Positions 19,796 through 50,386 of a stretch of 58,375 nt of DNA are shown one piece after another. The stretch lies in IMG/VR virus record IMGVR_UViG_3300011115_000472, positions 1 through 58,375 of that record, one strand, 5' to 3'. Position numbers and translations under genes: made by a program. Origin of the DNA: a virus. Under the pieces are notes generated by a model. That model saw only the letters and a program-made list of their open reading frames with translations, did no database searches and had not been told where the DNA came from. Each line of letters opens with the position of its first letter. Within the stretch, counting starts at the first letter, position 1.

Positions 19796-21400
19796 TTACA
19801 GTTGAGTTGTTACCGCAATCACGTCCCAACGTGTGTTGTTTGCGTTGTAGATGCATCCCACATACGTTGTTTTATTTGCTGTTGTAGCCGTTGGAAGTGT
19901 TACTCCAATTACCACATAAGTCGCATCCCACGTCAATGTGCGGGTTGTTCCATTATCTAAAAACCTAAAAATTAAAGAATTTCCATCGACAGGAGTTCCA
20001 GTAGGGGCATTAATTGTTAGGGTCGCCGCTAAGGCTGTAAAAGCATATTCGTCATAGGAAGCAATTGTGGGTGTCACTGACGACGCAGAAGCCACAGACA
20101 ACACCCTAGGATCAATCCTTTTGTTAGTCAGGGTATCTGTTGTTGCTCGACCAACTAGGGTGTCGGTGCTGGTGGGCAGAGTCAGCGTACCAGTGTTGAC
20201 GATGGTTCCGATGACAGGCGATGTCAGCGTCTTATTGGTCAAAGTGTCGGTGGTCGCACGGCCAACCAAGGTGTCGGTGCTGGTGGGCAAAGTCAACGTG
20301 CCAGTATTAACAATTGTCGAGATGACAGGGCTGGTTAGTGTCTTGTTAGTCAGGGTCTGGGTAGCCGTCAAGGTCACCACATTTATGCCGCCCACGGTCA
20401 CCGCAGTGGCATTAAACGTCCCATCAGTCACTGTCTTTCCAGTGAAGGTTAAAGCCGTAGGCAAAGACAGCGTGACAGTCGTTGTGCCTGTCGAGGTGAT
20501 TTCATTTGCCGTGCCATTGACGGCAGTCACCGCGCCAATTGATGCGGCACTAATTGTCACGTTGGCGGCGGCAGTCAATTGACCTTGAGCGTTAACCGTA
20601 AAGGTTCCGACCTCAGTTGTAGAGCCGTAAGACCCAGCAGTGACAGCGGTGCTGGCAATTGAAATTGTGCCAGTACTAGTGATTGGGCCACCAGTCAGAC
20701 CAGTGCCAGTATTAATTTGAGTAACCGTACCACCCGCTAATGCTGGCTGAGTAGTAATTGAAGTAATTCGACCAAATACATCAACTGTAACTACTGGAAT
20801 TGCACTTGCCGAACCGTAATTTCCAGCAGAAATACCAGTTGCAATTAAATTTATAGTAGGGTTACCCGTTGACCCATCAGGATTTACAACGCTAATATTT
20901 CCAAGCGTTCCAGCAATTGCCAAAGCGCTAACCAGCCCAGCATTTACACCAACCAAACCAGTCGAGCCAGACATGGATTGAAAGTTAGCAAGGAAGGCAC
21001 CAAGCGTTATTTGAGGGTTTGCAGACACCCCAGTACCATTGACAACACCTAACCCTGTACCAACCGTAATTTGACGCGCTGTGAGCGTGTTTGCGTCGGT
21101 TTTAACTTGTATTCCAACACCAGATGCATTTAAACTTGATGCCGCACCAGTTAAATTGATTTGTACGGTGCCTTGAGCACCAGTATCAACTGTCTGGAGC
21201 CCACTTCCAACTGCCAAATAACGTGAATTTGGCAACCCAGCTTGCTGTGTAACAGTCAAAAACGTGTATTGCAAGTTTGGTTGTGCCGCAATATCGCCAG
21301 TTGTAGTCTGAACAGTTACTCCGTTTTGGACAATAGGTACCGATTCACTGCCAGTTAAAGCAAGTGCCGTGGGTAAATCAGTTATTTTTACTTGTGCCAT
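19796..21400 (-). CDS. Tail-fibre-like protein with shared tip domain (534 aa)
   Basis: N-terminus [20 protein letters not shown] is the fibre-type 'KITDLPxAxxLxGxExVPVVQ' anchor. The shaft is Gly/Thr/Val-rich with two near-identical units containing [30 protein letters not shown]. The C-terminal 90 residues ([20 protein letters not shown] onward) match the tip of the 638-residue fibre. The start overlaps the upstream small gene by one base. Likely the principal side fibre or an anchor for it. Confidence 0.75.
20120..20350. repeat. Two direct DNA repeats of about 114 bp in fibre gene
   Basis: The segments around 20140-20230 and 20250-20345 are near-identical, each encoding [36 protein letters not shown]. 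The unit length is divisible by three. A third, partial unit lies towards 20345-20360. Confidence 0.7.
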
Positions 21401-21735
21401 TACGGTTGTAGATCAATTATGTCAATGTTTCCATCATTTTCAATGAGATTGGTGTTTTGTTCCGTACTGAGTATGGAACTAGAAGCCACAACAATGTCGT
21501 TTGGATCAGTTGCCACGCTGACATCAGGACGCGGAAAACGCAAAGCAATTTTTTCAGTCTTTCTTGCCGGCAAGCGATATGGGTCAATTTGATCGGCGCA
21601 GTTTTGTTGGCAGACTTTAAGACCGGGAAAATTGGGATCTGGCATTGCCTCATCAATAGCTCTTTTCATGCGACATCTATCGCATATAAAGATCGCTACC
21701 GATGCGTTACCTACTGTATCAAGGAAACGAGGCAT
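21400..21735 (-). CDS. Small Cys-containing virion-region protein (111 aa)
   Basis: ATG 21735 follows GAGGTAATTT. The first half has a likely metal site: ICDRC near residue 18, then VCQQNC near residue 42, with [11 protein letters not shown] and [20 protein letters not shown] between and after. The second half is acidic and disordered. Small proteins with CDxC, 'PGLxVC' and 'DPYRLPxR' are recurrent in the adaptor-fibre region of podophages. Function unknown; a small zinc-binding tail or assembly protein is plausible. The gene also contains one of three 21-bp dyad sites (21459-21479). Confidence 0.75.
21459..21479. promoter_or_regulatory. 21-bp dyad site C
   Basis: Arms GTTCCGTAC and GTATGGAAC around TGA, inside the 111-residue protein gene. 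Matches sites A and B in all sixteen defining positions. Confidence 0.6.
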
Positions 21736-26852: not shown

Positions 26853-27767
26853 TTAGACGCCAGCAGTGCCGTAAACGGCACGCGGGTCAGTGAAGCCAAC
26901 TGTATAACGCTCCGTAGCCTTGTAACGCATGGAGTCGGTTTCAAAGTCACCTTCCATGGTTTTCTCAAGACGACGACGCATCAACAATTTCAACCCTTCT
27001 GGGGCGTCAGTCTGCACCCAAAATGCAGTAGATGAGGTCAAGCGACTGATAACAGCGGCACCTTCGTCCAACAAGCCAATTGACTTGACGGGGTTGATGT
27101 CGTTGTTTGCATTACCAGTACGCAAAACGCTCTTTAACAACACTTCGGCTTGGAAAATATTGCCGGGTGCCACAATCAATTGACGTGGAACCAAACGAAT
27201 TTTCTTACCGTTGTTGTCAACTGCTTGACGGACTTGAATCAGCATTTGCTCTAGTGAAGTCTGCGACAAGTTAGCGGCAGTTGCCAACTGGTTGCTAAAC
27301 GTACCATTCACAATTGGGTGAGCAGTGTTGACCAAAGAAACGCCATCGCCACCGGGGAAGCTAGAGTTAAACGCAGTGTTCAGCACGTTAGCCGACAACA
27401 GTTCTTTGGTTTCCACCAAAGACTGTGCCAAATGGCGCGCATAAACTTGACCGATACGAATATGGTCACCGTCTTCAACAAGCACTTTGGTCAAAGCGAA
27501 GGCCAAGCCATACACTCGGTACACATAGCGTTGCAAGAAGAGTACGCCACCTTGCTGATAGGTCACCGGGGTGCCATCGGGCAATTGGGGCGCGGCTCCA
27601 AATCCATAAAGGACGGGCTCTTCGTGATAGTTACGGGGAATGCCGTCTTCTTCGCGGAACACACGGCTCCACTCGTCGGCTCTTTGGTCATAGACTCCGT
27701 CAAAACACTCGTTGAGAATTGGCTCAACGATGGAACGGAAGTCCGTACTTCGCATTGGTGCGGCCAT
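26853..27767 (-). CDS. Major capsid protein (304 aa)
   Basis: Strong TAAGGAGTAAATTACT before ATG 27767. The order portal, scaffold, this gene, followed by a strong terminator is that of a major capsid gene. The sequence has HK97-fold character: a helical N-terminal arm, a central [13 protein letters not shown] loop, [15 protein letters not shown] (strand plus 'P-domain' turn), and an end rich in strands ([20 protein letters not shown], typical of 'xSxxxRxxxRxxxGxxDPR'). The length is normal for a podophage capsid protein. Confidence 0.85.
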
Positions 27768-37003: not shown

Positions 37004-37010
37004 CCTGCTA

Positions 37011-37031
37011 GTTCCCTACCCGGTATGGAAC
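37011..37031. promoter_or_regulatory. 21-bp dyad site A
   Basis: Arms GTTCCCTAC and GTATGGAAC around three bases, right at the terminase stop codon. The same interrupted palindrome is found at 21459-21479 and 49453-49473. Probably a protein-binding site; the protein is not known. Confidence 0.6.
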
Positions 37032-38461
37032 TAAGCCGCATATGGATTTACTTTGCGCTTCTTGTTGTGCTCGTCGGCATCAAAGATGTCATCGTCGTCG
37101 TAGTCTTCCCTTGGTGGGATATCAATGCTGATCCAGCCATAGTCGCGCAGGTATCTAAGCCCTTGGCTGATGCAGTCAACGAACTCGTCGTGCGCCGTCT
37201 CAGGGAACGAGCAGATCTGCGACACCATGCCCTCAGCCCAGTCACGCACGTAGCCCCGCTTCTTGCCGTGCTCTGGCACCCACACTCTTCCAGCTTTGAT
37301 AATGTTAGCAACAATGCTAAGTCTCTGAGTCTTGTCGGCCCTGCCGGGGTTGTACCCGAACACTGGCAAGTGAGCGCGCTCCAAGTCCTGAATGAGCGAG
37401 ATACCCGCGGCTTTGTCCTCCACCAGCAGTAAGTCCACGCGCTTCTTTTCCTTGCCTTCGCCGTACACCACCTCGTACTCTTCAATGATCTTGGGCCGCA
37501 GGTCTGGATACGTTAGCTTGTCCTGCCAGCAATCGATCACCATGACGCACATACCGCCGTCTAGGGGCTTGAAAGCACCAAGGGTGATACATCCAGTAGG
37601 GTCGTTCTCTTTGCCGTCCTTGTAGCCGCAATCGTAGCTCTGGATGATGTACTCAAAGCGTGGGAATGGCTTGCCGTCTGGCCACAGTCTGAACCAGTCA
37701 CGCTTGACAATGCCGAACTCCTCACCGTCCAGAATTTCTGCGTGGATCTCTTGCCTGCCCAAGCGGGTGCCTTCGTACTGAAGGATCTGCTTCTGGAAGC
37801 TCACCGCCAAGTTTTTCAAATTGTCATACGTGCTGGCGCGTGTGATCACCACATCGTCGCCCTCACGCTCAATTAGATTGAGCACCACTTCCTTTGGCTT
37901 GGGCGTGGTGGAGCATATGAGCTTAGTGCGCTTACCCAATCGGATGCCGAATTGAATCATGTCCCACGATTCCTGCAGGTAGTCCCAAGCGGCCAACTCA
38001 TCGAGCCACCCACCATGGAACTGTGGGCCGCGGAAGCGATCGGGCTCACTGGCCGGGATACCCTTAATAAACGAGCCATTGATCAGCTTGATCTCGTGCA
38101 GTGCCTTGTTGTAGTCCGCCACCAATTCTTTGGGGATTACATTGAGGAGCCCTGAGTCGCCCTCAAAGCAGGTGCCCTTGACGTCACCGCTAGTAGGCGC
38201 GCTAACGAGCCAGCGTGTGTTGGGTTGCTCCCATGCCCACATGGCCAGCGTCTCAGCCGCCGCTCTGGTCTTGCCGGCACCGCGGCCAGCCAGCATCAGC
38301 CAAACATTCCACCACTCGCCGGCAGGCTCGATCTGGTGCTTGTGCGCCTCACTGCTGAGCCAGCGTAACTGCCAGTTGATGACAATCTGGTCTATCAGCG
38401 GACTGTTAGCGAACTCCTCACTGATCTGTGGGTCAGCAAGGATCTCGTCGAGGACACTCAT
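37031..38461 (-). CDS. terL: Terminase large subunit (476 aa)
   Basis: ATPase domain: Walker A GRGAGKT at 59-65, Walker B with catalytic acid GGWLDE at 150-155, coupling-type STTP near 184-187. Nuclease domain: SYDCGY with Asp277, LLVEDKA with Glu348/Asp349, and HDEFVD near the end, the three acidic clusters of the RNase-H-like fold. Acidic/basic tail. ATGA overlap with the small subunit. Packages DNA into the prohead and cuts concatemers; a permuted genome end, as the assembly suggests, agrees with headful packaging. Confidence 0.95.
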   Translation of the reverse strand: MSVLDEILADPQISEEFANSPLIDQIVINWQLRWLSSEAHKHQIEPAGEWWNVWLMLAGRGAGKTRAAAETLAMWAWEQPNTRWLVSAPTSGDVKGTCFEGDSGLLNVIPKELVADYNKALHEIKLINGSFIKGIPASEPDRFRGPQFHGGWLDELAAWDYLQESWDMIQFGIRLGKRTKLICSTTPKPKEVVLNLIEREGDDVVITRASTYDNLKNLAVSFQKQILQYEGTRLGRQEIHAEILDGEEFGIVKRDWFRLWPDGKPFPRFEYIIQSYDCGYKDGKENDPTGCITLGAFKPLDGGMCVMVIDCWQDKLTYPDLRPKIIEEYEVVYGEGKEKKRVDLLLVEDKAAGISLIQDLERAHLPVFGYNPGRADKTQRLSIVANIIKAGRVWVPEHGKKRGYVRDWAEGMVSQICSFPETAHDEFVDCISQGLRYLRDYGWISIDIPPREDYDDDDIFDADEHNKKRKVNPYAA

Positions 38462-46198: not shown

Positions 46199-47083
46199 TT
46201 ATATGGCCAGTTCTAATTTGTTTGTCAATACCTTTTTGCGAAGATCCATAACTTTTTTTACAACGGCCATCAACCCACGTTTTGCATGTAGGTCGTTGGC
46301 GTCGTGTCCCACCTCGTCGGCCATTGTCCAAGGCAACCCGGTACAAATCGCTGATTTTTCTCCAGTCTTGCTTTCGTCGTTGTCCGCAAAGATGTATCGA
46401 TCGCCTTTGACTTGATCTGCCACCTGCACCATGTTGGATGCAGAAAAGCAAACCACCACCGCGGCATTTAAACCAACGCTACGCAAGGCTTTGTGCAGGG
46501 ATAGACCCGTTGCATACCCCTCGACAAACCAAGCCTCTGTAGCCTCGTTAGAGCCCATGTACAGCACTGCATTCTTGGCGCGCATACCGTAGAGCATTTT
46601 CTTCTCATACTTGCGGTTTGGCTCGTCCCAGTAGATCTCCTGAAATCCCTGCAGTTTGCCCGTCACCACGTTGCGCATAGGCACCAACAACTTCCCATCA
46701 AAAACGTAGGCTTGCATGTCCTGAAAACCTTTGATCTCCAAGTACGGGTGGTTTTCCATCTTGGCCGCACGCATGGTGATGTTTGCACGCTCCGCGGCCA
46801 ACTCGTATGCCCGATCCTTGTCAGAGTTAGCCGTCTGCCGCTTCATAGCCCATTCGCGCTTCTCTTGATCCGTCCATGGCTTGGCATTGGGGTCTTCGTA
46901 CCAAATAACTCTGGCTTCATCCGCCCAGTTCATCACCCAGCCACGCTGGCCATCGTAAAAGAATGCGCCATTGGTTGATCTTGGTTTGTCTACCGTCCCA
47001 CAACGACGAATGCGCTCTGAAGCAAACAGTTTGTTTGGGTCAATTTCTACGCCATGGGCGCGTGCAAAGTTAATGAAACTCAT
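46199..47083 (-). CDS. Toprim-domain primase (294 aa)
   Basis: The N-terminal 60 residues (CGTVDKPRSTNGAFFYDGQR, GWVMNWAD) are like the DNA-binding front of phage primases in which a zinc site is often lost. Residues 180-260 are a Toprim domain: AWFVEGYATGLSLHKAL with Glu188, and IFADNDESKTGE with the Asp-x-Asp pair (234-236). There is no helicase domain, which is provided by the separate SF2 gene. Expected to make RNA primers on phage DNA. Followed by strong structure and a terminator. Confidence 0.85.
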   Translation of the reverse strand: MSFINFARAHGVEIDPNKLFASERIRRCGTVDKPRSTNGAFFYDGQRGWVMNWADEARVIWYEDPNAKPWTDQEKREWAMKRQTANSDKDRAYELAAERANITMRAAKMENHPYLEIKGFQDMQAYVFDGKLLVPMRNVVTGKLQGFQEIYWDEPNRKYEKKMLYGMRAKNAVLYMGSNEATEAWFVEGYATGLSLHKALRSVGLNAAVVVCFSASNMVQVADQVKGDRYIFADNDESKTGEKSAICTGLPWTMADEVGHDANDLHAKRGLMAVVKKVMDLRKKVLTNKLELAI

Positions 47084-47085
47084 TT

Positions 47086-47466
47086 TTAAATTCCAAACAA
47101 ATCTTTTTGCATTGCAACTGACCCGTCAAAAATCATGCTTTTCCACAAAGTAACTTCTGGCATGTGGTTGTGGGCCTGTTGAGGAATAACTTTTCCTATC
47201 GGCTGTATCCATCCAATAGTGTGTAAAACAGTCACCCCTGAAACCCACACATTGTGGTGAAGGGTCGATGGGCGATACAGTTTTCTGTCAAGGCAATACC
47301 CCCTAAATTCATCACCCATAACATTTGGCTTTTGGGACAACAATTCTTCAGCGCAAATTAAATATTCAACAACAAAATCTGGTTCAACTCTAACTGCTTT
47401 GTCCCAACATTTACCCGCTAAATCTATAGCGTTTTCCATGCGTTCTGTCATATCAATGCGTTTCAT
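47086..47466 (-). CDS. Hypothetical protein between helicase and primase (126 aa)
   Basis: ATG 47466 overlaps the helicase stop by 4 bases. Helical N-terminal half (MENAIDLAGKCWDKAVRVEP), then GDEFRGYCLDRKLYRPSTLH and WVSGVTVLHTIGWIQPIGKV, which looks like a winged or mixed alpha/beta fold with NHMPEVTLWKSMIF. The conserved 'VMGDxFRxxCxxRGLxxP' type stretch is found in small phage replication-region proteins, perhaps helicase/primase accessory factors. Not named. Confidence 0.72.
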   Translation of the reverse strand: MKRIDMTERMENAIDLAGKCWDKAVRVEPDFVVEYLICAEELLSQKPNVMGDEFRGYCLDRKLYRPSTLHHNVWVSGVTVLHTIGWIQPIGKVIPQQAHNHMPEVTLWKSMIFDGSVAMQKDLFGI

Positions 47467-48986
47467 CTCTTCACCGCTTTCTTGTATGCCATGTTCAACT
47501 GCAAAATTTTGTTCTGTACGTTACGCGTGATCTCTACGTTAGGTGACAAACTAAATTGCCAAAGGGGTTCGTAGCCTGCAATCTTCTTGAACAAGTGGTA
47601 CGCACGCCCCTGCTGGCTGGCAGGCTGACTGTGCTCTCTCGCATACCTCACCACCTGATGCCACAAGTGCTCAGCGTTGTCGGCCAGTTTCTTTTTGTTC
47701 TTACCCTCACCAATAAATATCTCGGCCATGATGCCGTGAGCGGCGTCCTCGAGCGCTTTAGCTGGGCGCTCGTAGCCACAACCCATACAGCGTTTATGGA
47801 ATGGCTTGTAGCCACACTTGGGACACCCCTTCGACTCAATTTCCTCGTCTTTGCGAATCTTCTTGTCGAGCTTCTCGCCGTCGTCGAGCTTCTCTAACCC
47901 ATTAAAAAATATGTCTGTGAAATCTTCAGCAAAGCGAATGATGTTGCCGCTGAAGTCCAGCAAATAGCAATCCTTCTTGCCTTCGTGCGAACGCAGGCCA
48001 CGCCCCCACATTTGAATAGCCGTAGACAACGACTTGCGCAGGGGACGGGCATCACACACACAACCCACGTCAGGCACGTCAAAACCCTTTGCAAGCGCCT
48101 CTACAGAGATCAGCACCCGCAGGTAGCTGTCTGGCTTGCGGTACTCCTTTAACAGGTCTTCACGCTCTTTGTCGGTGGTGTTTGAAGTAAACACCGCGGC
48201 CATGACGCCTTGGTCAATAAATGACTTGGCCAACTCTTCACAGTGCTTGATGGTGGCGCCAAACACAATCGTCTTGCGGTTCTCAGCAAACTTCACCCAC
48301 TCTCTGACAACGTCGCCAACGATGCCCATCTCGCGCTCTTCAGCCGCCCTGTCTGTCCATTCACCGCCTGCGGTGGCCGCACCCGTCATGTCGGGCCGTG
48401 TGCACGAGAAAATCCGCATAGGCACCAGCACCCCTGACTCGGTCAGATCGTGCATTGTGGTGGCGTTTATGAGGTTCGTGAAGATGTTGCCTAAGCCTGC
48501 AGAAAAGGGCGTGGCTGATAGACCAATGATGGCCGCGCCACTCTCCATGGCGTAGTCAGTCCACACCTTGTACTGAGTGTGTGCTTCGTCCACCACCAAC
48601 ACGTCTAACTGTGGCCAATACTCACGCTTGGCAATGGTCTGCGCAGACGCAATCTGCAACAGTAGATCGGGCATGCGACGCCAGTGGTTGGCTTGGATTA
48701 CCCCATGCTCTTTGAGCCCGTAGCCGTCGGCCACAGTTGAGGTCTGATTAATCAGTGTGGTGCGGTCACACAGAAAAACGGCACGCTTGCCTTTTTGCAT
48801 GGCTTCGTTGCAAATACGAAGTCCAAGATACGTTTTTCCAGCACCCGTGGGTGCCATGATTAACTGTCGTTTGTGGCCATCTCTGAACCCCTGTCGAAGG
48901 GCGTCGTGGGCGGATAATTGGAACGGTCGTGGTGCTGGAAAAGTAGTTCCATCATCACACCTACTTGGTGCTAGGACTGTGTTCAT
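47463..48986 (-). CDS. SF2 DEAH-box helicase with zinc finger (507 aa)
   Basis: Walker A APTGAGKT (45-52), motif II DEAH (133-136), motif III SATP (157-160), and motif VI QMWGRGLR (325-332), all intact, as in the type-I-restriction/UvrB-like SF2 helicases of phages. A four-Cys zinc knuckle (Cys388, 391, 400, 403) in CPKCGYKPFHKRCMGCGY follows, then a helical tail. Expected to unwind or remodel DNA or RNA in phage replication. ATGA overlap with the ParB-like gene and with the next gene. Confidence 0.9.
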   Translation of the reverse strand: MNTVLAPSRCDDGTTFPAPRPFQLSAHDALRQGFRDGHKRQLIMAPTGAGKTYLGLRICNEAMQKGKRAVFLCDRTTLINQTSTVADGYGLKEHGVIQANHWRRMPDLLLQIASAQTIAKREYWPQLDVLVVDEAHTQYKVWTDYAMESGAAIIGLSATPFSAGLGNIFTNLINATTMHDLTESGVLVPMRIFSCTRPDMTGAATAGGEWTDRAAEEREMGIVGDVVREWVKFAENRKTIVFGATIKHCEELAKSFIDQGVMAAVFTSNTTDKEREDLLKEYRKPDSYLRVLISVEALAKGFDVPDVGCVCDARPLRKSLSTAIQMWGRGLRSHEGKKDCYLLDFSGNIIRFAEDFTDIFFNGLEKLDDGEKLDKKIRKDEEIESKGCPKCGYKPFHKRCMGCGYERPAKALEDAAHGIMAEIFIGEGKNKKKLADNAEHLWHQVVRYAREHSQPASQQGRAYHLFKKIAGYEPLWQFSLSPNVEITRNVQNKILQLNMAYKKAVKR

Positions 48987-49792
48987 TTTTGTGATTTATA
49001 AAATTTGTCAAGTTGTGTTTGTTGCTTTTTGCAAAGTTTGATGCATTCGCTCTTCTCGCGCATGATGGATGCCAAGCGCACTTCTTGTTGAGCCAACAGA
49101 AAGTTCAATCGCTTGATCTCTGCGTGGGCTACTTTGAGCGGCTCATCAGCCTCTAACAGTTTGTTAAGGGCTTCAAGGTCAGCCTGCATGGCCAAGTCGT
49201 TGGCTTTCAGTTCTTCATCGCTTGGCGCGTTGCCTTCCAAAATAGATGGCTTTGGCTCTTTCGGTGCTGTTATCGCGCCTTTTTGCTTGTCTTTGTCTAG
49301 CTTGGAAATTTCGGCACCACGCTTGACGCTGATCTTGCCAGCCTCTACCGCCTTGACCACATCTTCATTGCCCTTTTTCAAAACAACCTTGGCTTGCTCG
49401 ATGGTGGCGGTGCTAGTCCCAGCCATTTTTGCCAACTCTTTGCCAGTTCTTTGTTCCATACCCAGTAGGGAACTAGCGACTGTTCCCACGGGATACCATT
49501 CATAAACCTTGGTATATGCCATTGCCAACTGGCCTTTGTTGAGGTGCCTGCGGCTTTTATTTTGCGACAAAACAAAATCTCTTGGATTAACGTCTTCAGC
49601 CAAATCCACCTCTGGGCACGGCATACCCATGTCGGTGGCCACCGTGTATCGATGCCACCCATCGATTACTTTATCCTCAAAAATAACTATGGCGTTTTGC
49701 ACACCAATGTCCTCGATGCTGTCTCTCAAGTTTTGCAGTTCCTCCTCCGACATGGGGGGGAATGCTTTGCTCAGCGGATGTTGTTCTCTCAT
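48983..49792 (-). CDS. ParB/Srx-fold protein (269 aa)
   Basis: Start ATG 49792 (MREQHPLSKAFPPMSEEELQ) behind ACTGGAGAAAAAA. Residues 1-90 follow the ParB N-terminal (sulfiredoxin-like) pattern with VQNAIVIFEDKVIDGWHRY, the GWHR box near 44-47. A helix-turn-helix follows (GKELAKMAGTSTATIEQAKV), then KISVKRGAEISK. The C-terminal 90 residues are coiled coil. No ParA gene was found, so it probably acts as a DNA-binding or nucleotide-dependent regulator rather than a partition system. Contains dyad site B. Confidence 0.8.
   Translation of the reverse strand: MREQHPLSKAFPPMSEEELQNLRDSIEDIGVQNAIVIFEDKVIDGWHRYTVATDMGMPCPEVDLAEDVNPRDFVLSQNKSRRHLNKGQLAMAYTKVYEWYPVGTVASSLLGMEQRTGKELAKMAGTSTATIEQAKVVLKKGNEDVVKAVEAGKISVKRGAEISKLDKDKQKGAITAPKEPKPSILEGNAPSDEELKANDLAMQADLEALNKLLEADEPLKVAHAEIKRLNFLLAQQEVRLASIMREKSECIKLCKKQQTQLDKFYKSQK
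49453..49473. promoter_or_regulatory. 21-bp dyad site B
   Basis: Arms GTTCCATAC and GTAGGGAAC around CCA, inside the ParB-like gene. One of three such sites in the genome; a site within a ParB-family gene invites the idea of a parS-like element, but this is inference only. Confidence 0.6.
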
Positions 49793-49805
49793 TTTTTTCT
49801 CCAGT

Positions 49806-49884
49806 AAAAAAGCCCTAGGCGAGACTCTCATCCTTGTGGGATGTTGGCGGACTGGTGGGTACCAGCAGAGTCTCGTCTAGGGCT
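49806..49884 (-). terminator. Structured terminator with 18-base arms between Cro-like and ParB-like genes
   Basis: Arms at 49811-49828 and 49867-49884 pair over 18 positions with one deviation (a G-U pair in the plus-strand RNA, A-C in the minus). The loop contains two further hairpins, CTGGT/ACCAG and CATCC/GGATG, making a three-way junction. In the leftward transcript the stem is followed by TTTTT (49810-49806). More elaborate than an ordinary terminator; it may be an attenuator or a small RNA. Confidence 0.7.
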
Positions 49885-49920: not shown

Positions 49921-50121
49921 TCACAAAAACAAATCTGGGCGCAGTTCTTTTTTTGTGACCAGTTGTTGAGTTGCCTCTTCAATCTTCACACACAGCAAAG
50001 GGGAGGCACGCTTACGCCCACTCATCAGAAGCGATAACCATGTTGGGGTGATGCCAAGGTGCTCAGCCATCTCAAGTTTTGCCCCCCGTGGCTCTGTAGA
50101 AAAATATTCTGTCAATGTCAT
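49921..50121 (-). CDS. Cro/YdaS-like helix-turn-helix regulator (66 aa)
   Basis: ATAAGGATAACAAA precedes ATG 50121; the frame can be extended to GTG 50193 but without a ribosome site. EMAEHLGITPTWLSLLMSGR is the helix-turn-helix, and the end EATQQLVTKKELRPDLF is the diagnostic tail of the Cro/YdaS regulator family. Placed at the head of the leftward operon next to divergent promoters, so likely to set the balance between the two early transcripts. No CI-type partner was found. Confidence 0.82.
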   Translation of the reverse strand: MTLTEYFSTEPRGAKLEMAEHLGITPTWLSLLMSGRKRASPLLCVKIEEATQQLVTKKELRPDLFL

Positions 50122-50386
50122 TTTGTTATCCTTATGAGTTGTTGGCGTCTCCCATACGGCAGGGTCGGTCGCAACTGAATATAAAGCTCCCACGGGGCCA
50201 ATCCGTTTACGCCAACACGGCTGGGGACTAAAAAAAGGGTCATAGCGGCACAGCGGCCTACCTTAGTTCAATCCCCATGCGTGTAGGTTGTTGGCAGTGC
50301 ACTCACATAAAGCAGTGGTGTTCGTCTTCCTTGTGCACAGGAATGATACGGCGCTAACCCGCATTACACACTACCAACACGAACAT

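What the first reader, a model, noticed from the sequence alone, without database searches (positions are those of the whole stretch)
21459..21479. Three copies of a 21-bp interrupted palindrome of unknown function
Sites at 21459-21479, 37011-37031 and 49453-49473 share arms GTTCCNTAC and GTANGGAAC around a three-base centre: sixteen fixed positions in perfect dyad symmetry. Sixteen specified bases three times in 58 kb is far beyond chance. Two sites lie within genes and one at the terminase stop codon, so protein coding does not explain the shared sequence. One is within the ParB-like gene, so a parS-like or repressor-binding role is conceivable.
Basis: partly seen in the sequence, partly recalled or inferred. 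Interest (0 to 1): 0.7.

Follow-up and report, generated by a model that had tools for sequence, protein, structure and literature searches.

The report
Phage ParB's own scattered binding sites
The three repeated palindromes look like docking sites for the phage's own ParB-like DNA-binding protein, and dozens of related freshwater phages each carry their own version of the protein with a matching, differently spelled set of sites, so the system changes its address code quickly while keeping the addresses' places.

Summary
In detail: three exact copies, none expected. The window is a virus record with many syntenic relatives. The literal motif is found only in its closest relative, G001, yet each relative with a readable set carries its own dispersed palindrome family (about 3-11 copies per near-full genome). 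The sets sit at recurring places: inside the parB-like gene and just after the terminase stop. A genome's own parB-located palindrome recurs 5.7 times on average, other genomes' 0.45 times. Across 32 ParB variants, recognition-helix residues 132 and 133 fully account for half-site positions -5 and -3. Residue 133 and the -3 base switch together six times on the helicase tree. The adjacent Cro-like protein does not explain the sites. They are best read as parS-like sites for an orphan ParB of the Spo0J/Noc/KorB fold. No ParA or tyrosine integrase was found in 20 records, and no ParB of 53 has the canonical ParA-binding motif, so ordinary partition is unlikely. A KorB-like genome-wide clamp coupled to the overlapping helicase gene is my inference. 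Binding, CTP use and role are untested.

The parts
21459..21479 (.). site 1, GTTCCGTACTGAGTATGGAAC, inside ORF 21400-21735 (111 aa, unknown function)
   Evidence: equivalent site with 1 mismatch in G001
37011..37031 (.). site 2, GTTCCCTACCCGGTATGGAAC (arms extend to TAGTTCC..GGAACTA, 37009-37033), at the terminase stop codon
   Evidence: G001 has GTTCCATACCCGGTATGGAAC here; most relatives have their own palindrome just after terL
49453..49473 (.). site 3, GTTCCATACCCAGTAGGGAAC, inside the parB-like gene, encoding about residues 120-127 in or beside a low-confidence loop between the N domain and the HTH
   Evidence: relatives carry their own palindrome inside parB
48983..49831 (-). ParB-like protein, 282 aa, proposed reader of the sites
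   Evidence: PHROG ParB-like 7.6e-21; AF2 model matches Spo0J/Noc/KorB structures
49373..49444 (-). predicted helix-turn-helix of the ParB-like protein (helices 130-137 and 141-153; first recognition-helix residues T141-A142)
   Evidence: sub-threshold Pfam HTH_ParB match
48986..49264 (-). C-terminal coiled coil of the ParB-like protein, conserved between phages whose N-terminal/HTH module has been swapped
47463..48986 (-). SF2-type DNA helicase gene overlapping the parB stop by ATGA, an arrangement kept in 51 of 53 loci
46199..47083 (-). Toprim primase-like gene, same gene block

Best explanation
The three palindromes are dispersed parS-like recognition sites for the phage's own orphan ParB-like protein (48983-49831). 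Supported by comparative evidence: (1) each phage of the lineage carries a palindrome family that matches its own ParB and not those of its relatives; (2) the two first residues of the ParB recognition helix predict the half-site bases; (3) the sites recur at fixed places, above all inside parB (in sequence coding for a disordered linker or loop) and just after terL. Inferred: ParB dimers nucleate at each site, and by analogy with Spo0J, Noc and KorB may close as NTP-dependent clamps that slide into flanking DNA, so that 3-11 sites per ~55 kb could load protein over much of the phage chromosome. Partition with a ParA is unlikely. The conserved C-terminal coiled coil and the translationally coupled helicase suggest a role in phage DNA replication or organisation, with KorB-like regulation, including self-regulation through the site in parB, as an alternative output.
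For: Own-site enrichment of 5.7 versus 0.45 copies per genome for other genomes' sites. Palindromes inside parB exceed synonymous-codon shuffles (Fisher p 5e-16 over 41 genes). Recurring places. Residue 133 explains 100% of position -3 (S/T gives G, P/K gives A; z 19.7) and residue 132 explains 100% of position -5. On an independent helicase tree the -3 base and the residue-133 class both change six times, always together; partial Mantel of site with HTH given helicase r=0.38, p=0.0002, while site with helicase given HTH is 0.01. For -3 the best helicase column explains 27% and the best Cro-like column 44%. In the class A model, residues 132-133 begin the recognition helix (132-139), and the parB palindromes fall in or beside its disordered linker 168-190. 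Both models match ParB/Noc/KorB structures. Residue 132 corresponds, by motif, to R173 of Caulobacter ParB, an experimentally proven specificity residue (PMC7383237). A swapped ParB N-terminal module goes with a changed site class: class B sites share an ACYSRGT core (7 of the 8 class B phages seen), including Acidovorax phage AP1 and ctsTn925.
Against: No binding, ChIP or nucleotide-binding data. Class B ParBs like the window's are few, so the residue-base code is shown for class A only; the window's assignment rests on the shared arrangement. The window's own parB palindrome is not significant by codon shuffling taken alone (p 0.31). Position -5 is partly confounded by phylogeny: helicase columns reach z 16 with 61% explained. 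Overall site distance also correlates with the neighbouring Cro-like protein (partial Mantel 0.45), probably through linkage. A few relatives (L139, L153, L176) have no clear matching site, and AP1 has only one copy. Pfam ParB matches are below the curated cut-off.
Confidence: 0.86

Rival explanations
1. Operators or stoperators of the Cro-like repressor encoded next to parB (49921-50193).
For: PHROG transcriptional repressor match; coarse correlation of Cro-like distance with site distance.
Against: Window, L132 and L137 have nearly identical Cro-like proteins (94-96%), yet their sites differ (GTTCCNTAC, GGTGAAC, CCAGTT). Phages with ACTAATC, ACTAGTC and AGTAGTC sites share the same Cro-like recognition region. 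No Cro-like column explains position -3 beyond 44%.
Confidence: 0.04
2. A ParABS partition system of a plasmid-like prophage, with a ParA supplied by the host or not recognised.
For: parS-like sites and a ParB fold; ParB without a phage-encoded ParA could use a host ParA.
Against: No PF13614 ParA and no tyrosine integrase in 20 records, controls positive; canonical ParA-binding motif in 0 of 53 ParBs (P1 ParB also lacks it, PMC12704722, so this alone is not decisive); sites dispersed rather than clustered.
Confidence: 0.08
3. KorB- or VirB-like transcriptional control from a distance, including self-regulation through the site inside parB. This shares the ParB-site pair with the best explanation and differs in the output.
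For: KorB is a ParB-family sliding clamp acting from distal operators (PMC11790492); KorB chains are among the model's matches; sites lie in parB itself and between genes.
Against: Many sites lie mid-gene in structural genes; promoters were not mapped; no KorA-like partner was sought.
Confidence: 0.3
4. A mobile palindromic element or RNA hairpins (terminators) rather than protein sites.
For: Inverted repeats, sometimes in tandem 28-30 bp apart, common after terL.
Against: The N positions break RNA pairing in two of the three window copies; no T-tract follows the window sites; a hairpin would not explain the link to ParB recognition-helix residues.
Confidence: 0.02

Closest known systems
KorB-OB of plasmid RK2 (ParB-family sliding-clamp repressor; PMC11790492)
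   Same: ParB N domain plus HTH plus C-terminal domain; several operators; long-range action
   Different: KorB has an IncC/ParA-interacting peptide and a KorA partner; here no ParA found, hypervariable sites, a site inside the gene itself, helicase-coupled gene
Chromosomal ParB-parS and Noc-NBS (Spo0J family; PMC7383237)
   Same: Palindrome read by an HTH in which the R173-equivalent residue sets specificity; similar predicted fold
   Different: parS is highly conserved in bacteria, whereas here the half-site differs between close phage relatives; no ParA; mostly odd-length palindromes
Actinobacteriophage parABS such as RedRock (PMC7157519)
   Same: Phage-encoded ParB with diversified specificity, proposed to be selected to avoid incompatibility
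   Different: RedRock has ParA and direct 8-bp repeats in two parS loci beside the cassette, for prophage maintenance
Orphan ParB-CTPase-fold proteins in phages (PMC12704722)
   Same: ParB fold without ParA on mobile elements; some bind CTP
   Different: The parts of that survey read here do not mention cognate DNA sites for phage orphans
N15 dispersed centromere sites (recalled, not tested; originals not held)
   Same: Several inverted-repeat sites spread over a phage genome
   Different: N15 has SopAB with a ParA-type ATPase and a plasmid prophage

Membership tests
Orphan ParB-CTPase-fold proteins | ParB/Srx N-terminal fold plus HTH, no parA partner | tested here: met
Orphan ParB-CTPase-fold proteins | NTP (CTP) binding through Box II | not testable with these tools
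   G[FW]HR present in 52 of 53 proteins; binding needs an assay
ParABS partition system | ParA Walker ATPase | tested here: not met
   0 of 20 records, 14 of 14 control genomes positive
ParABS partition system | canonical ParA-binding motif in ParB | tested here: not met
   0 of 53
ParABS partition system | cognate palindromic sites read by the ParB HTH | tested here: inconclusive
   strong covariation, no binding assay
ParABS partition system | sites clustered at the par locus or origin | tested here: not met
   dispersed, 3-11 copies per near-full genome
KorB/OB-type clamp repressor | multiple dispersed operators for a ParB-fold protein | tested here: met
   that the protein binds them is inferred
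KorB/OB-type clamp repressor | KorA-type partner and action on promoters | not tested
   no promoter mapping or partner search made
Stoperators of a phage immunity repressor | sites bound by the lysogeny repressor | tested here: not met
   the Cro-like protein does not track the sites at fine scale; no tyrosine integrase

The most novel reading that the evidence does not exclude
A ParA-free, genome-wide ParB clamp that marks a phage's own DNA for its coupled helicase/primase, with site specificity diversifying quickly (by single-residue changes and N-terminal module swaps) so that co-infecting relatives do not share each other's loading sites: a self/non-self addressing system for phage replication.
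Probability: 0.2. Interest if true: 0.88.

Novelty: new variant of a known kind. Interest (0 to 1): 0.72.

Why it matters
Bacterial parS is nearly fixed, so how ParB specificity evolves has been studied mainly through the ParB/Noc pair. This lineage offers a natural series of more than a dozen ParB-site pairs with a readable two-residue code, whose sites keep their places while their letters change. It also points to a function for orphan phage ParBs, which are common and unexplained, and gives pairs of proteins and sites that may be useful as mutually exclusive DNA tags.

Tried and rejected
A shared protein motif was rejected: the sites lie in different genes and between genes. A general excess of palindromes in the window was not found. 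The search for related loci with the window ParB alone found no relatives, so the neighbouring helicase was used instead. Of other ParB-bearing phages, MT835519 gave only GC-rich noise. The full text of Dedrick 2016 is not held.

Full report
OBSERVATION. The 21-bp interrupted palindrome is exactly as reported: three copies at 21459, 37011 and 49453, none expected by chance, and no near-copies within three mismatches. The three-base centre is always Y-S-R, which makes the core ACYSRGT, and the window holds no other such core with matching arms. The window is one virus record. Its only named megablast match over 40-58 kb was MW202545 from Manatee Spring, which lacks the literal motif even with three mismatches. 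The close relative G001, a fragment, has two of the sites at the equivalent places.

THE SITES ARE REPLACED, NOT ABSENT, IN RELATIVES. Most relatives found through the terminase carry a short palindrome just after the terminase stop codon, but with different letters. A blind search for repeated palindromes showed that genomes with a readable set have their own family, for example TACTAGTC-N-GACTAGTA eight times in MW202545 and GTGGAAGCGCTTCCAC eleven times in G007. Mapped onto genes, these recur at the same places: inside the parB-like gene, just after terL, and at a few further spots such as the gene at 19796-21400 around residue 167. For 47 relatives the parB gene was extracted beside the conserved helicase; most have such a palindrome within parB, usually with a second copy elsewhere. 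Scanning each genome with every genome's parB-located palindrome gave 5.7 own copies against 0.45 for foreign ones, the latter mostly between closely similar seeds. Codon shuffles that keep the protein confirm an excess of palindromes inside parB (18 of 41 genes at p 0.05 or less, Fisher p 5e-16); the window's gene alone is not significant there.

THE READER OF THE SITES. The ParB-like protein has a conserved C-terminal coiled coil and a variable N-terminal and HTH part. That part comes in at least two clearly different classes, and the site class changes with it: class B phages (the window, L132, L134, L135, L138, AP1, ctsTn925) have ACYSRGT cores (L148 is an exception). Within class A, a scan of protein columns against half-site positions put two neighbouring recognition-helix residues on top: residue 133 accounts for position -3 completely and residue 132 for position -5 completely. 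On a tree of the neighbouring helicase the -3 base and the residue-133 class change six times each and always together, and site similarity follows the HTH after correction for helicase similarity but not the reverse. As a caution, position -5 also tracks phylogeny (helicase columns reach 61%), so -3 is the clean case. The half-sites were taken by me from the outputs. In the AlphaFold2 model of class A these two residues begin the recognition helix, and the parB palindromes fall in or beside its disordered linker; in the window's model the site encodes residues in or beside a low-confidence loop before the HTH. Both models match Spo0J, Noc and KorB structures best. By its motif, residue 132 corresponds to R173 of Caulobacter ParB, one of four residues proven to set parS/Noc-site specificity (PMC7383237); this correspondence is my reading of the motif, not a structural superposition.

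ALTERNATIVES. The Cro-like protein beside parB is nearly identical in phages with different sites. No ParA and no tyrosine integrase were found in 20 records with positive controls, and the canonical ParA-binding motif is absent from all 53 ParBs, so partition by a phage ParABS is unlikely, although a host ParA cannot be excluded.

MECHANISM. Supported by comparison: a ParB-site pair that co-varies. Inferred from the Spo0J, Noc and KorB families: dimer nucleation, NTP-dependent closure and sliding. The parB stop overlaps the helicase start by ATGA in 51 of 53 loci, and the coiled coil stays while the N-terminal part is swapped, which suggests a constant partner, perhaps the helicase. Gene regulation like KorB (PMC11790492) is the main rival for the output. 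Site spacing is dispersed and only weakly more even than chance.

WIDER REACH. Acidovorax phage AP1 and ctsTn925 carry class B ParBs with ACYSRGT palindromes inside parB. The podoviruses P26218 and ctfPj964, whose distantly related ParB-like proteins share the string GISNEVITL in the predicted HTH region, each have four perfect dispersed GATACC-N3-GGTATC palindromes. MAG contigs carrying the lineage's capsid gene are mostly binned as Betaproteobacteria, a weak host hint.

NOVELTY. In the papers searched and read I saw no description of dispersed, hypervariable ParB sites in ParA-less phages; the library is partial. I rate it a new variant of the ParB-parS kind.

Noticed in passing
window 27403-27422: TCTTTGGT-N4-ACCAAAGA palindrome in the major capsid gene; the arms recur in several relatives with different centres (L009 40248, L024 20610, L046 16802). 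It may simply reflect the highly conserved protein.
   Followed up: no
L249 7218-7427: Three copies of TGTGAGTACTCACA within 210 bp near the terminase of podovirus ctfPj964.
   Followed up: no
L247 (3919, 9742, 14123, 25767) and L249 (13982, 20034, 25359, 38190): Dispersed GATACC-N3-GGTATC palindromes in two podoviruses with related ParB-like proteins; perhaps a second case of the same system.
   Followed up: partly
L176 1947-2696: The parB position holds a third, unrelated N-terminal module in front of a similar C-terminal coiled coil, without the G[FW]HR motif.
   Followed up: no
L043-L051, after terL: Palindromes in tandem with about 28-29 bp periods, up to three copies.
   Followed up: partly
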